A stretch of 64,000 bases of DNA, from the NCBI GenBank assembly GCA_947474705.1, contig CANJJS010000007.1, forward strand, positions 41,381-105,380, in the 5' to 3' direction. The DNA is from Acetobacteraceae bacterium (GTDB lineage Bacteria; Pseudomonadota; Alphaproteobacteria; Acetobacterales; Acetobacteraceae). The translations under genes were made by a program, and so were the position numbers. Positions within the stretch are counted from its first letter, which is position 1. Every line of letters begins with the position of its first letter. This document shows positions 3,284 through 30,920 of this stretch, piece after piece. The notes under the pieces are model-generated. The model saw nothing but the letters and a program-made list of their open reading frames with translations, did no database searches and was not told where the DNA came from.

Positions 3284-4927
3284 GTGCCAGACACAGGCGT
3301 ATTGCCGGAACGCGTCAACGCGGGCGACGTGGAAACCTACGACGCGATCGTCATTGGGGCCGGCATTTCCGGCATGTACATGCTCTACCGCCTGCGCGAA
3401 CTCGGCATGAAAACCAAGGTGTTCGAGGCCGGCACCGGAGTCGGCGGCACCTGGTACTGGAACCGCTATCCCGGCGCCCGTTTCGATTCCGAAAGCTGGA
3501 CCTACGGCTATTCCTTCTCCAAGGATCTGATGCAGGAGTGGGACTGGAAAGAACATTTCTCGCCTCAGCCCGACACGCTGGAATATCTCAACCTTGTCGC
3601 CGATAAATTCGATTTGCGTCAGGATATCCAGTTCCAGACCACCATTTCCGCCGCGCACTGGGATCAGGCCGCGAATCAGTGGACTGTCACGACGGATAAG
3701 GGCCAGAAGGCGAAGTCGCGCTTTCTGTTCACCGCCATCGGCATCCTGTCCGCCTACACACTCCCCAAAATTCCGGGCCGCGACAGCTTCAAGGGGCCCG
3801 CCTATCACCCGGCGCGCTGGCCGCACACGCCCGTCGATTTCACCGGCAAGCGCGTTGGCATCATCGGCACTGGCGCCACCGCCATCCAGGCCATCCCGGA
3901 AATCGCCAAACAAGCGAAACAACTGACCGTCTTTCAGCGCCGCCCCAACTGGGCCGCCCCTTTGCACAACGCCAAAATCTCCAAACAGGAGATGGAAGAC
4001 ATCAAATCTCGTTACGAAGAGATCTACGCCCACTGCGCCACCACCCCCGGCTGGTTCATCCATCAGGCGGACCAGCGCAAAACCCTCGAAGTCCCGCCCG
4101 CCGAACGCGAGGCTTTCTGGGAAAAACTCTACGGCGAACCCGGCTTCGGCATCTGGATGGGCAATTTCCGCGATATCCTCACCAGCGAGGAAGCCAACGC
4201 CGCCATCACCGCCTATATCGCCAAGAAAATCCGCCAGCGAGTCAACGACCCGAAAGTCGCGGATAAGCTGATCCCCAAAGATCACGGCTTCGGCACGCGC
4301 CGGGTGCCCCTGGAAAGCGGCTATTTCGAAACCTATAACCGCGACAACGTGACCTTGGTCGATACGCTCGTGGACGAACCCATCGAGTGCATCACGCCCA
4401 ACGGCATCAAAACCGCCAAACAGGAACACGAGTTCGACATCCTCATCTATGCCACCGGCTTCGACGGCGTCACCGGCGCCTTCGACCGCATGGACATCCG
4501 CGGCAAAGACGGCCTCGAACTCAAGAACGCCTGGGCTGAAACCCCCCGCACCTATCTTGGCATGCTCGCCGAGGGCTTCCCGAACATGCTCATGGTCCTG
4601 GGCCCGCACACCGCCCGCGGCAACATCCCACAGGCGATTTCCCACAGCGTCGAGTTCCAGGCGGGCATGCTGAAACACATGCTCGACAACAACCTGACAC
4701 ATGTGGAAACCCGGCCCGAACAGGTCGACGAGTGGACCGCCACCGTCATCAAAGCGGGCGAGGCACTCCTCTCCTCGAAAGTCGACTCCTGGCAAAACGG
4801 CGTCAACCGTAACGTCGAAGGCCGCACCGTCCGCCGCGTTCTCGGTTACAACGGCAACGCCGGACATTTCCGCCGCGTGACCGACGAAGTGGCCAAAGGC
4901 GGCTATAAGGAATTCTCGTTCCAGTAG
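3284..4927 (+). CDS. Baeyer-Villiger-type flavin monooxygenase (cyclohexanone/phenylacetone monooxygenase-like)
   Basis: Start set at GTG 3284, preceded by GGGAG, rather than the track start at 3143 that runs through the divergent promoter region; this gives 547 residues. The FAD-binding GAGISG lies at residues 25-30 and the NADPH-binding GTGATA near residue 190. Between them FKGPAYHPARWP (about 169-180) is an exact match to the Baeyer-Villiger fingerprint FxGxxxHxxxW[PD]. The enzyme should insert oxygen next to a carbonyl, turning ketones into esters or lactones with NADPH and O2. It heads a tight operon with an EamA exporter (31 bp gap) and a CoA-transferase (15 bp gap). It is a close paralogue of the product of 7078-8724. 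Confidence 0.92.
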   Translation: MPDTGVLPERVNAGDVETYDAIVIGAGISGMYMLYRLRELGMKTKVFEAGTGVGGTWYWNRYPGARFDSESWTYGYSFSKDLMQEWDWKEHFSPQPDTLEYLNLVADKFDLRQDIQFQTTISAAHWDQAANQWTVTTDKGQKAKSRFLFTAIGILSAYTLPKIPGRDSFKGPAYHPARWPHTPVDFTGKRVGIIGTGATAIQAIPEIAKQAKQLTVFQRRPNWAAPLHNAKISKQEMEDIKSRYEEIYAHCATTPGWFIHQADQRKTLEVPPAEREAFWEKLYGEPGFGIWMGNFRDILTSEEANAAITAYIAKKIRQRVNDPKVADKLIPKDHGFGTRRVPLESGYFETYNRDNVTLVDTLVDEPIECITPNGIKTAKQEHEFDILIYATGFDGVTGAFDRMDIRGKDGLELKNAWAETPRTYLGMLAEGFPNMLMVLGPHTARGNIPQAISHSVEFQAGMLKHMLDNNLTHVETRPEQVDEWTATVIKAGEALLSSKVDSWQNGVNRNVEGRTVRRVLGYNGNAGHFRRVTDEVAKGGYKEFSFQ

Positions 4928-4958
4928 TGTCCGACACAAGAAACGGACCGGCGGACGC

Positions 4959-28313: not shown

Positions 28314-28394
28314 GTCCACGGATGCACACAGATATGCCTGAGCGGAGGCACGGCTCTCACCTCCGCTCAGGCATATCTGTGTGCATCCGTGGAC
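28314..28394. repeat. Perfect 35-bp inverted repeat with 11-base loop
   Basis: Arms 28314-28348 and 28360-28394 are exact complements (they start GTCCACGGATGCACACAGAT). The loop is CACGGCTCTCA. The size matches the hairpin at 23618-23691, but the sequence belongs to another family. It lies between the unknown gene at 27619-28236 and the DGR template repeat. A cruciform or a transcript-end structure are both possible. Confidence 0.85.
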
Positions 28395-28595
28395 AAATCT
28401 TATCGCGCCGCGCCACGGCCGGAACGCGGCCCTGGGCGCGGGCGTCTGTCGCCCTTGTGAGCCAAGACAGACGCCTTCGCCAGGGGACCCGAAGGGTGTT
28501 GTTCACCCCGGCCCCGCTCATCATGGACACCTCTGGACGCAGCATCGGCACGCCCGGTTGGGCCATGACCCAACCAGCTCTGGCATTGATGCGTA

Positions 28596-28707
28596 CTGGC
28601 GAGACGGAACCCAACCCAGGAGCGGGGCGCCTCGTTGTTTCTGTTGCGGTTTCCCGCGCGGTTGTTCCGGTTGTTGTTCCAGAAACCGCCGCGAAGAACA
28701 CGATCAG
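28596..28707 (-). repeat. DGR template repeat (TR)
   Basis: A 112-bp sequence, non-coding in my reading, that is collinear without gaps with 28946-29057 at an offset of exactly 350 bp. Read on the minus strand, its central part is packed with AAC codons (a WNNNRNNR-type word), the usual look of a DGR template where adenines are the mutable bases. It differs from the variable repeat at 13 places, all adenines here on the minus strand, and all 99 other positions are identical. The 3' third of it on that strand, rich in G and C, is unchanged and would act as the initiation-of-homing region. An ORF runs through it (28400-28789) but looks accidental. Confidence 0.93.
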
Positions 28708-28856
28708 GAGGTGGCCAGGCTTCCTTACCCGGCACCGCCGGGGACGGAAGATCGTCAGGCCCGAGGGCCTTTGTTCGCAGACGGACCATGGCGCCGATGC
28801 CGCCGCGTCGCGCAAGGATATTCGTAAAGATACGATTTCGTTATGAGAGAGAGCTG

Positions 28857-28886
28857 AAAAAAATCGAACGGGGGCTTCGCCCCCGT
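28857..28886 (-). terminator. Intrinsic terminator / hairpin downstream of the DGR target gene
   Basis: On the minus strand ACGGGGGC-GAA-GCCCCCGT is a perfect 8-bp stem with a 3-base loop, followed within a few bases by a run of seven T. It sits about 50 bp after the stop at 28936 and about 60 bp beyond the variable repeat. Hairpins at this place are also known to promote homing in DGRs, so it may have two roles. Confidence 0.8.
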
Positions 28887-28935
28887 GCCCCAGGAAGAAA
28901 GATTTCAAGAAGCAAAGAAGCAAAGATTCAAGAGA

Positions 28936-30435
28936 TCAAAGGGTCCTGGCGAGACGGAACCCAACCCAGGAGCGGGGCGCCTCGAGGTTTCTGCCGCGGT
29001 CCCCCGCGCGGTAGTCCCGGCCGTCGAACCAGAAACCGCCGCGAAGAACACGATCAGAATCGCCCTCTATCCAGGCTGTGCCGTCCCTGGGGGCCTTTGC
29101 GAGATCGAAGTGGTAGGTGTCCGCCACCCATTCCAGGACATTGCCCAGCATGTCCTGGAGGCCCCAGGGATTGGGCTTGTAAGCATCGACCTCGGTCATA
29201 CCGGGGATCCGGAAATTGCCCTTTTCGTGATCGATTTCCACCTCGTCGCCCCACCAGCGCGCCGTCGTTGTGCCCGCGCGGCAGGCATATTCCCACTCCG
29301 CCTCGCTGGGCAGGCGGTAGGTCTCGCCAGTACGTTCCGACAGCCAGGCGATGTAGGCCATGGCGTCGGCGAACCCGACGTTGGTGGCGGGGTGGCGGGG
29401 GAAGGTGGAAACGTCCGGCTTTTTCCAAGGGTGGTTCTTGTCCTGAACGAAGGTCTCGTATTCGGCGACGGTGACCGGGGTCCGGCCCAGAAGGAAGGGG
29501 CGGCGGATCGCGACCTCGCGTTGCGGTTGGGCGTCTGTGTCCAATCCCTCGGTTTCGAAGCGTTTGGATTCTTCCAGCGGGATGCCCATCAGGAAGCGTC
29601 CGCGGGGGATCAGAACCATGTCGGGGGCGTCGGCCTCGCTGGCGCCGATCAGGCCGCCCAAGGCGCGGACGATCCGGACGAGGCGGGAGAGGGGAGCGGT
29701 GAGGTTCAGCGTGTCTTTGACGAGTTCGACCGTCAGCCGCTCGAACCACGCGAGAACGTTGGCGCGGAAGCGGTCGGAGACGTCGCGCACGGCTTCGATG
29801 GTGTTCACCAAAGCGGACAGGTCGAGGCTGGTGTTGTCCACGGTGAGAAACCAGCGGGAGGCGTCGATCTCGAACGTCATTTCCTTGAGGTAGAAGGTGA
29901 CGAGGCGGCCCTGCTGAACGAAATGCGGGGCGGTGTCCTGTTCGTCGCGGAGTTTGACGACGGCGGCCTGGAAGGCGTCCAGGCGGTCGATGGCATCGGC
30001 GACGGCGGCACGCTCGACGGTGGCGCGGTGGGTGCCCAGGGGGGCGATGCCGTTATAGGCACGGTGGGCAGCGCGGATGGTGCGGTCGAGGCGGTCTTTC
30101 AGGCCGAAGATCGCCTGGCGGCGTTGTTCGGTGTGGTAGTCGGGTTCGTCGGGGTCTTCGGGTTCCGGTGGTGGTTCCAGGGTATTGACGGCGCGGGCCA
30201 CCAGGTAGGCGGCATGGACGACGCGGTGGTGATGCACGGGCCGGTGGACGGCGAGCATGGCGTCCGTCAGGGCCAGGGCTTTTTCGATGTCGGCGTCGAG
30301 GGTCTCGCGCGGGCTGTTGCCTTGGTCGCGGCGGATGCGGTCGACGCGGAGCGCGAGCTGGGTGAGTTCGTGGGTCAGCGCCTCAGCGGGGGTGGGCGCG
30401 CGTGGGGGGGAGTCTGGGGTGAGGGTGGTGCTCAT
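28936..30435 (-). CDS. FGE-sulfatase / C-type-lectin-fold DGR target protein with hypervariable C-terminus
   Basis: A 499-residue protein. Residues 1-260 look all-helical and match no family I know. From about 265 it is an FGE-sulfatase domain ('DMVLIPRGRFLMG', 'PVTVAEYETFVQD', LPSEAEWEYACRAGT, 'GLQDMLGNVLEWVADTY'), ending in the typical 'DRVLRGGFW...APRSWVGFRLAR'. The last ~38 residues (460-497) are the DGR variable repeat, at the usual ligand-binding surface of this fold. The catalytic Cys pair of true formylglycine-generating enzymes is not visible, so it most likely binds ligands. Its ATG overlaps the TGA of the TIR gene upstream (ATGA), implying coupled translation and a joint function. 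Confidence 0.92.
   Translation of the reverse strand: MSTTLTPDSPPRAPTPAEALTHELTQLALRVDRIRRDQGNSPRETLDADIEKALALTDAMLAVHRPVHHHRVVHAAYLVARAVNTLEPPPEPEDPDEPDYHTEQRRQAIFGLKDRLDRTIRAAHRAYNGIAPLGTHRATVERAAVADAIDRLDAFQAAVVKLRDEQDTAPHFVQQGRLVTFYLKEMTFEIDASRWFLTVDNTSLDLSALVNTIEAVRDVSDRFRANVLAWFERLTVELVKDTLNLTAPLSRLVRIVRALGGLIGASEADAPDMVLIPRGRFLMGIPLEESKRFETEGLDTDAQPQREVAIRRPFLLGRTPVTVAEYETFVQDKNHPWKKPDVSTFPRHPATNVGFADAMAYIAWLSERTGETYRLPSEAEWEYACRAGTTTARWWGDEVEIDHEKGNFRIPGMTEVDAYKPNPWGLQDMLGNVLEWVADTYHFDLAKAPRDGTAWIEGDSDRVLRGGFWFDGRDYRAGDRGRNLEAPRSWVGFRLARTL
28946..29057 (-). repeat. DGR variable repeat (VR)
   Basis: This lies inside the 3' end of the FGE-fold gene and aligns with 28596-28707 without gaps. 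The 13 differences fall at 28985-29028. On the coding strand they are A to G eight times, A to T four times and A to C once. They change seven or eight template Asn codons to Phe, Asp, Gly, Tyr and Leu, and one change is silent (GGA to GGG). Only adenines of the template are affected, which is the signature of DGR mutagenesis. Confidence 0.94.
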
Positions 30436-30920
30436 GGGGTCGCGCCCGCGGACAAGATGGCTTTTTGGGCCTGGAAGGTTTTGTGGATTTCTTGCTGGAT
30501 CGCGTGATGGCCGTGGTTGCGCGGGGACCAGGTGTTCAGCGGTTTTGGGCGCCTGTTGGCGTCAAGGGGGATGATGTGCAGGCCGTCGCCGATGTCTTTC
30601 GAGAACTCCTCCCACATGCATTTATTCAATAGCACGGGCACCAGTTTGAAGTGCTTCGCTGCCGCGCCGCGCGCCTTGATCGCGGGGACTTCCGTTTCCA
30701 TGATGTAGCCGGGGAGGAAAAACGAGGCGCTGAGCGCCAGAACCGCGATATCCGCGGCGGCGATTTTTTCCTTAATCTCGGTATCGAAGTTGTCGCCCGC
30801 GAGGAGTTGCTGGTCGGTCCATATTTCGCCACCCAGCCGTTCCACGGACTGCTCCATGAGGCGCAAGACCATTGCGAACGGCTTCGCGTCGTCGTGGGCG
30901 TAGGAGACGAAAACCTTCAT
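30432..30920 (-). CDS. TIR-domain protein
   Basis: Start set at ATG 30920, giving 162 residues. MKVFVSYAHDDAKPF is the first TIR strand and box 1. 'IWTDQQLLAGDNFDTEIKEK' and 'IAVLALSASFFLPGYIMETE' follow; the Glu in the latter occupies the position of the catalytic glutamate of NAD-hydrolysing TIR domains. The domain fills the whole protein, with no fused sensor. The gene ends in an ATGA overlap with the DGR target gene, so the two are made together. Expected role: an NADase or signalling effector that answers a ligand sensed by its partner. The track ORF to 31385 is an over-extension into a repeat. Confidence 0.88.
   Translation of the reverse strand: MKVFVSYAHDDAKPFAMVLRLMEQSVERLGGEIWTDQQLLAGDNFDTEIKEKIAAADIAVLALSASFFLPGYIMETEVPAIKARGAAAKHFKLVPVLLNKCMWEEFSKDIGDGLHIIPLDANRRPKPLNTWSPRNHGHHAIQQEIHKTFQAQKAILSAGATP

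What the first reader, a model, noticed from the sequence alone, without database searches (positions are those of the whole stretch)
28596..29057. Diversity-generating retroelement: a template/variable repeat pair with adenine-only differences
28596-28707 and 28946-29057 are collinear over 112 bp with no gap and an offset of 350. There are 13 mismatches. On the coding (minus) strand each one is an adenine in the first copy, changed to G (8), T (4) or C (1) in the second; all other positions match. The first copy has runs of AAC codons, the second encodes Phe, Asp, Gly, Tyr and Leu there. This one-sided pattern is what DGR mutagenic homing leaves and is not expected from ordinary duplication and drift.
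Basis: partly seen in the sequence, partly recalled or inferred. Interest (0 to 1): 0.96.

Follow-up and report, generated by a model that had tools for sequence, protein, structure and literature searches.

The report
Hitchhiking self-mutating gene without its enzyme
A bacterial sensor gene here is rewritten from a private template, yet the locus has lost the enzyme that does the rewriting and appears to borrow it from a second copy of the system elsewhere in the genome; the same enzyme-less arrangement is found in five related species.

Summary
It is a genuine DGR template/variable repeat pair. The VR is the 3' end of an FGE/C-type-lectin gene that overlaps an upstream TIR gene. But the locus is not a complete DGR: it has no reverse transcriptase (RT) or Avd. 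The DNA between VR and TR is a full DGR's post-VR sequence joined to the last ~60 bp of an RT gene, so Avd and nearly all of RT were deleted. The only DGR RT found in this genome belongs to a second, formerly complete DGR (contigs C15/C157) and is split by a multi-copy insertion sequence. Four other species of the genus carry the same RT-less TIR-VR-TR unit. The five form one clade (support 100/100) with one shared junction, yet each species' VR tracks its own TR and not the TR of the full DGR in its genome. The TR RNA keeps covarying hairpins shared with full DGRs. Best reading: a non-autonomous 'satellite DGR' driven in trans, probably silent in this assembly. The trans step is inferred, not shown.

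The parts
28596..28707 (-). Template repeat (TR), 112 bp, 24 A on the coding strand
   Evidence: 13 of 13 TR/VR mismatches are TR adenines
28946..29057 (-). Variable repeat (VR), 3' end of the FGE-sulfatase/C-type-lectin gene
28936..30435 (-). Variable protein gene, 499 aa: unassigned N-terminal part plus C-terminal FGE-sulfatase/CLec domain (aa 270-497)
   Evidence: PF03781 E=4e-47; PvdO 5hha E=5e-31 and Treponema TvpA 2y3c E=3e-11
30432..30920 (-). TIR-domain gene, 162 aa, overlapping the start of the variable protein gene by 4 bp
   Evidence: TIR_2 hit on the longer ORF; ThsB-like TIR E=4e-12
28868..28886 (-). GC-rich hairpin (GGGGGC-GAA-GCCCCC) about 60 bp after VR, followed by a T run; candidate target-site hairpin and/or terminator
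   Evidence: hairpins at the equivalent place after the VRs of the other loci
28803..28935 (-). Post-VR DNA homologous to post-VR DNA of the full DGR on contig C15; ends near the deletion junction
28708..28770 (-). Remnant of the RT gene's 3' end, i.e. the 5' part of the TR RNA: covarying hairpin 28757-28770, second hairpin 28728-28742, box GGAAGCCTGGCC next to TR
28513..28612 (-). TR 3' end plus spacer element of the TR RNA: box ATGCCAGAGC, covarying hairpin 28556-28575, box ending CATGATGA
   Evidence: (covariance model E=6e-23)
28314..28394 (.). 35-nt perfect inverted repeat (MITE-like) downstream of the TR; not thought to be part of the mechanism

Best explanation
A non-autonomous ('satellite') diversity-generating retroelement. 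It consists of a TIR gene, a variable FGE/CLec gene and a private TR. An ancestral full DGR (VR-Avd-RT-TR) lost Avd and almost all of RT in one deletion, before at least five species of the genus separated. It kept every cis element: TR RNA with its 5' and 3' structured parts, the TR 3' end (IMH*-like), VR, and the hairpin after VR. Its TR RNA is bound by RT and Avd made by the full DGR elsewhere in the genome, copied with adenine errors, and the cDNA replaces only its own VR. Shown: the TR/VR pattern, absence of RT/Avd at the locus, one clade and one junction for the RT-less loci, TR-specific copying in each species, the shared covarying TR RNA, and a full DGR in the same genome in four of the five species. 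Inferred: the trans supply of RT/Avd, and that the TIR-CLec pair is a defence sensor/effector. In this assembly the RT is split by an insertion sequence, so the satellite is probably idle here now.
For: A/non-A mismatches in five RT-less pairs: window 13/0, G156 12/1, G200 11/0, G219 13/0, G205 10/6. Each VR has 0-1 non-A mismatches to its own TR (G205 has 6) but 9 or more, mostly 15-25, to any other TR, including the full DGR's TR in the same genome. Satellite clade support is 100/100 on the TR RNA and 98/97 on the FGE domain with the VR left out. One junction is shared by all five, 67 or 70 nt from post-VR box to RT-remnant box. Two TR RNA hairpins covary across satellite and full DGRs: scores 0.681 vs 0.239 shuffled and 0.439 vs 0.088 shuffled. 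The full DGR with RT and Avd sits at a separate locus in G156, and a full DGR with intact RT in G200 and G219; it is IS-split in G000. The genus RT acts in trans in G156: two remote VRs match the full DGR's TR with 9 A/1 non-A and 14 A/2 non-A differences. G205, where no such RT is found, shows the decayed pair.
Against: No direct evidence that RT acts on satellite TR RNA. In this assembly the RT is interrupted. A satellite clade that kept its own RT until recently and lost it several times is not strictly excluded, although the shared junction makes it unlikely. The absence of RT in G205 could reflect its 80% completeness. The species tree was not built, so horizontal transfer of the satellite between species is possible.
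Confidence: 0.78

Rival explanations
1. Fossil: the satellite lineage had its own RT until recently and lost it separately in each species; the TR/VR pattern is a leftover and nothing acts in trans.
For: The RT in this genome is broken and G205's pair is already decaying, so loss of activity does happen.
Against: All five loci share one junction with nearly the same spacing and form one clade. In G156, G200 and G219 the pairs have 0-1 non-A differences although the satellite TRs differ from each other at many non-A sites, so copying went on after the split. The TR RNA hairpins are conserved by compensatory change in the satellites.
Confidence: 0.15
2. Misassembly: RT and Avd really lie between VR and TR but were dropped.
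For: DGR repeats and insertion sequences do break assemblies; the other DGR of this genome is split over C15/C157, and G219's satellite spans two contigs.
Against: The same RT-less junction is contiguous within one contig in G000, G156, G200 and G205, from separate assemblies, and the joined sequence is a homologous unit.
Confidence: 0.02
3. The satellite is served by another, unrelated RT or by a plasmid/phage-borne RT missing from the assembly.
For: G205 has distant RT-like ORFs (32% and 28% identity). This genome has no intact DGR RT among its contigs.
Against: The satellite TR RNA shares its structured elements with the full DGR of the same genus, and every genome with a complete RT of this clade also has the satellite (4 of 4, counting the IS-split one; 1 of 29 without; Fisher p=1.2e-4, phylogeny not corrected).
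Confidence: 0.04
4. Ordinary duplication followed by drift or selection.
For: The two copies are close together.
Against: 13 of 13 changes at A (p=7e-11) and the same pattern in homologous pairs of other species.
Confidence: 0.005

Closest known systems
Canonical DGRs (Bordetella phage BPP-1; bacterial VR-Avd-RT-TR cassettes with FGE/CLec targets)
   Same: TR/VR pair, adenine-specific change, CLec target, hairpin after VR, structured spacer RNA after TR
   Different: No RT and no Avd at the locus; only the last ~60 bp of an RT gene remain, as part of the TR RNA
Remote or dispersed VRs served in trans by one TR and RT (Treponema denticola PMC4891356; cyanobacteria PMC7517822)
   Same: Target diversified away from the RT
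   Different: Those targets use the TR of the full DGR; here the locus has its own TR, which the full DGR's TR cannot replace (22 non-A differences in 107 aligned bases for the window VR)
Degenerate DGR loci of Thiohalocapsa PB-PSB1 (PMC10907252)
   Same: Conflict-type targets including TIR and CLec; RT genes lost or interrupted by mobile elements; trans activity proposed
   Different: There the VRs of the RT-less loci DGR 4 and 5 match DGR 2's TR and the loci are recent within one genome; here an RT-less locus with a private TR is shared by five species and traces to one ancestral deletion
Partial DGRs reported by DGRscan and MetaCSST (PMC4159848, PMC6642488)
   Same: TR/VR pairs without an RT listed
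   Different: Reported as partial predictions (for DGRscan explicitly because contigs are fragmented), not as an inherited element

Membership tests
Diversity-generating retroelement | TR/VR near-repeat with adenine-specific differences | tested here: met
   13/13, p=7e-11
Diversity-generating retroelement | VR at the 3' end of a CLec/Ig-fold target gene, changes at codon positions 1 and 2 | tested here: met
   FGE/CLec family, 12 of 13 changes at positions 1 or 2
Diversity-generating retroelement | DGR-type RT encoded at the locus | tested here: not met
   no RT in the locus; only the last ~60 bp of one
Diversity-generating retroelement | Avd-type accessory protein at the locus | tested here: not met
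   no Avd between VR and TR; Avd is present in the full DGR (G156 homologue NF033474 E=1.4e-32)
Diversity-generating retroelement | Structured TR RNA recognised by RT-Avd | tested here: inconclusive
   covarying hairpins shared with full DGRs; binding itself not tested
Diversity-generating retroelement | Active mutagenic homing | not testable with these tools
   Needs population sequencing or a homing assay
Satellite (non-autonomous) element dependent on a helper | Helper with compatible machinery in the same genome | tested here: met
   G156, G200 and G219 intact; G000 split by an IS; not found in G205 (80% complete)
Satellite (non-autonomous) element dependent on a helper | Single origin and inheritance in the non-autonomous state | tested here: met
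   one clade, one junction; vertical descent versus transfer not separated
Satellite (non-autonomous) element dependent on a helper | Dependence on the helper shown by its removal | not testable with these tools
   G205 (no helper found, decayed pair) agrees but is a single, incomplete genome

The most novel reading that the evidence does not exclude
A lineage of inherited non-autonomous DGRs exists: elements that keep a private template, a variable sensor and a TIR partner but discarded RT and Avd once, long ago, and have since been diversified across several species by a helper DGR in trans, as satellites use helper machinery. RT-anchored DGR surveys miss this class by design.
Probability: 0.72. 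Interest if true: 0.72.

Novelty: new variant of a known kind. Interest (0 to 1): 0.66.

Why it matters
DGR surveys usually start from the RT gene, so RT-less units with their own template are overlooked and the number of hypervariable genes per genome is underestimated. A clean satellite/helper pair, with two templates in one cell that do not cross over, makes it directly testable what RT-Avd recognises in the TR RNA and what keeps each cDNA on its own target. It also gives a route by which immune-like TIR-CLec sensors gain hypermutation without carrying the enzyme. G205 and the IS-split helper here offer natural before/after-loss comparisons.

Tried and rejected
Pfam RVT_1 search of the genome found only the C-terminal half of one RT and missed the N-terminal half at the end of C15; that half turned up only through the TR1 DNA search, so an absence from that search alone is weak. 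Close named relatives in GTDB contigs gave only distant FGE domains (at most 41% identity) and no name for the organism. Rfam matched mainly the palindrome at 28314-28394, with animal microRNA models below their thresholds; rejected as chance fits to a perfect hairpin. No sigma-70-like promoter was found for the TR RNA. A conserved box of the TR RNA had no exact match in IMG/VR viral contigs. Conserved synteny of the satellite was tested and rejected: flanking window genes (gltX and others) do not accompany it in the other species. Other FGE paralogues of this genome are not further VRs of either TR. Two literature searches worded for RT-less elements returned nothing that describes them. No structure prediction was run: the FGE/CLec family assignment by sequence was already clear.

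Full report
OBSERVATION. The two intervals align as stated: 112 bp, no gap, 13 mismatches, every one an A in the 28596-28707 copy on the minus strand. With 24 A in 112 positions the chance that all 13 fall on A is 7.3e-11. Twelve of 13 lie at codon positions 1 or 2, almost all in AAC codons. Similarity ends abruptly at both sides. The second copy (VR) is the 3' end of a 499-aa ORF with a C-terminal FGE-sulfatase/C-type-lectin domain, related to PvdO and to the Treponema DGR variable protein TvpA. A 162-aa TIR gene overlaps its start by 4 bp.

NO ENZYME AT THE LOCUS. Only 238 bp separate VR and TR, and no RT or Avd lies nearby. The window is C7:41381-105380 of a 5.48-Mb, 205-contig assembly. 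Searches with the TR regions led to a full DGR split over two contigs. At the end of C15: FGE gene with VR1, an Avd-like ORF and the N-terminal half of an RT. At the start of C157: the C-terminal half of the RT, with the DGR-type LPIGNLTSQ and YVDD motifs, then TR1. The Avd assignment rests on its G156 homologue, which matches NF033474 at E=1.4e-32. The two RT halves flank an insertion sequence: the 9-bp repeat ATGCCGGCG is present at both junctions, the ends form imperfect inverted repeats, and joining the flanks gives one open RT frame. The IS ends occur 4 and 3 times in the genome at 100% identity over the aligned length. No other RT matched the G156 DGR RT at E<=1e-6 in this genome. So the assembly appears to have no intact DGR RT.

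ORIGIN OF THE WINDOW LOCUS. DNA after VR2 is homologous to DNA after VR1, and DNA before TR2 is homologous to the last part of the RT gene plus TR1 and its downstream spacer. The locus is therefore a full DGR from which Avd and nearly all of RT have been deleted.

OTHER SPECIES. In the 33 genomes of the genus, homologous RT-less loci occur in G156:C98, G200:C90, G205:C205 and G219 (C143/C41, split in a poly-G tract). A/non-A mismatches are 12/1, 11/0, 10/6 and 13/0. A covariance model of the TR 3' element finds, in the genus, just these TRs, those of the full DGRs, one degraded TR in G210 and one weak hit in G228. G000, G156, G200 and G219 each have one RT-linked and one RT-less TR. In the wider family it adds G241, which carries a full DGR, a contig-start hit in G258 and a weak hit in G117.

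ONE ORIGIN, CONTINUED COPYING. The five RT-less loci form one clade on the TR RNA (100/100) and on the FGE domain without its VR (98/97). They share one junction, 67 or 70 nt from the post-VR box to the RT-remnant box. Yet each VR differs from its own TR by 0-1 non-A positions (6 in G205) and from every other TR, including the full DGR's TR in the same genome, by 9 or more, mostly 15-25. VR copying from the private TR thus went on in each lineage after the RT was gone from the locus. The simplest source of enzyme is the full DGR, intact in G156, G200 and G219. G205, where no such RT is found (80% complete), has a decayed pair. In G156 the full DGR also serves two remote VRs (9 A/1 non-A and 14 A/2 non-A), so its machinery reaches other loci.

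TEMPLATE RNA. Satellite and full-DGR TR RNAs share a box before TR and boxes after it. A hairpin after TR covaries: 91.7% of cells paired, 6 of 8 pairs with changes on both sides, score 0.681 against 0.239 shuffled and at most 0.149 when slid. A hairpin before TR, which in full DGRs lies inside RT codons, is 97.8% paired with score 0.439 against 0.088. This would explain why the deletion spared the last RT codons. In BPP-1 the spacer 3' of TR recruits the bRT-Avd complex (PMC12875486) and a hairpin after VR is needed for target recognition (PMC3240598); both kinds of element are kept here. Relatedness can inflate the shuffled controls, but the slid controls keep relatedness.

CONTEXT AND FUNCTION. 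All five satellites have a TIR gene directly upstream of the VR gene, while other flanking genes differ, so TIR-VR-TR behaves as a unit. DGR-diversified CLec sensors in TIR/STAND-type conflict systems are known (PMC10907252, PMC7159879). A TIR effector with a hypervariable sensor is the likely role; this is inference.

KNOWN VERSUS NEW. Trans-acting DGRs, remote VRs and degenerate loci are published. Partial predictions without an RT exist. Roux et al. state that their approach would not see targets away from the RT. I found no description of an inherited RT-less element with a private TR. The library lacks most subscription journals, so priority is not established.

LIMITS. The trans step is not shown.

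Noticed in passing
window 28314-28394: Perfect 35-nt inverted repeat with an 11-nt loop, MITE-like, about 200 bp downstream of the TR; among held loci found only at this place.
   Followed up: partly
G000 contigs C15 (end 70797) and C157 (start); L054, L055: Multi-copy insertion sequence with a 9-bp target duplication splits the only DGR RT of the genome; its ends occur 4 and 3 times at 100% identity.
   Followed up: yes
G156: L185 about 4708 (+) and L186 about 3564 (-): Two remote VRs that match the full DGR's TR with almost only adenine differences.
   Followed up: yes
L211 (G210:C223) about 4600-4950: Degraded DGR: TR with only the 3' end of an RT gene left and no adjacent VR recognised.
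   Followed up: partly
L189 (G225:C252) 379-771: N-terminal RT fragment (67% identity) with an internal stop near a contig end; no TR RNA found in that genome.
   Followed up: no
RT 3' end of full DGRs, e.g. L001 about 590-625: The covarying TR RNA hairpin overlaps RT codons, so the RT gene's end doubles as template RNA structure.
   Followed up: partly
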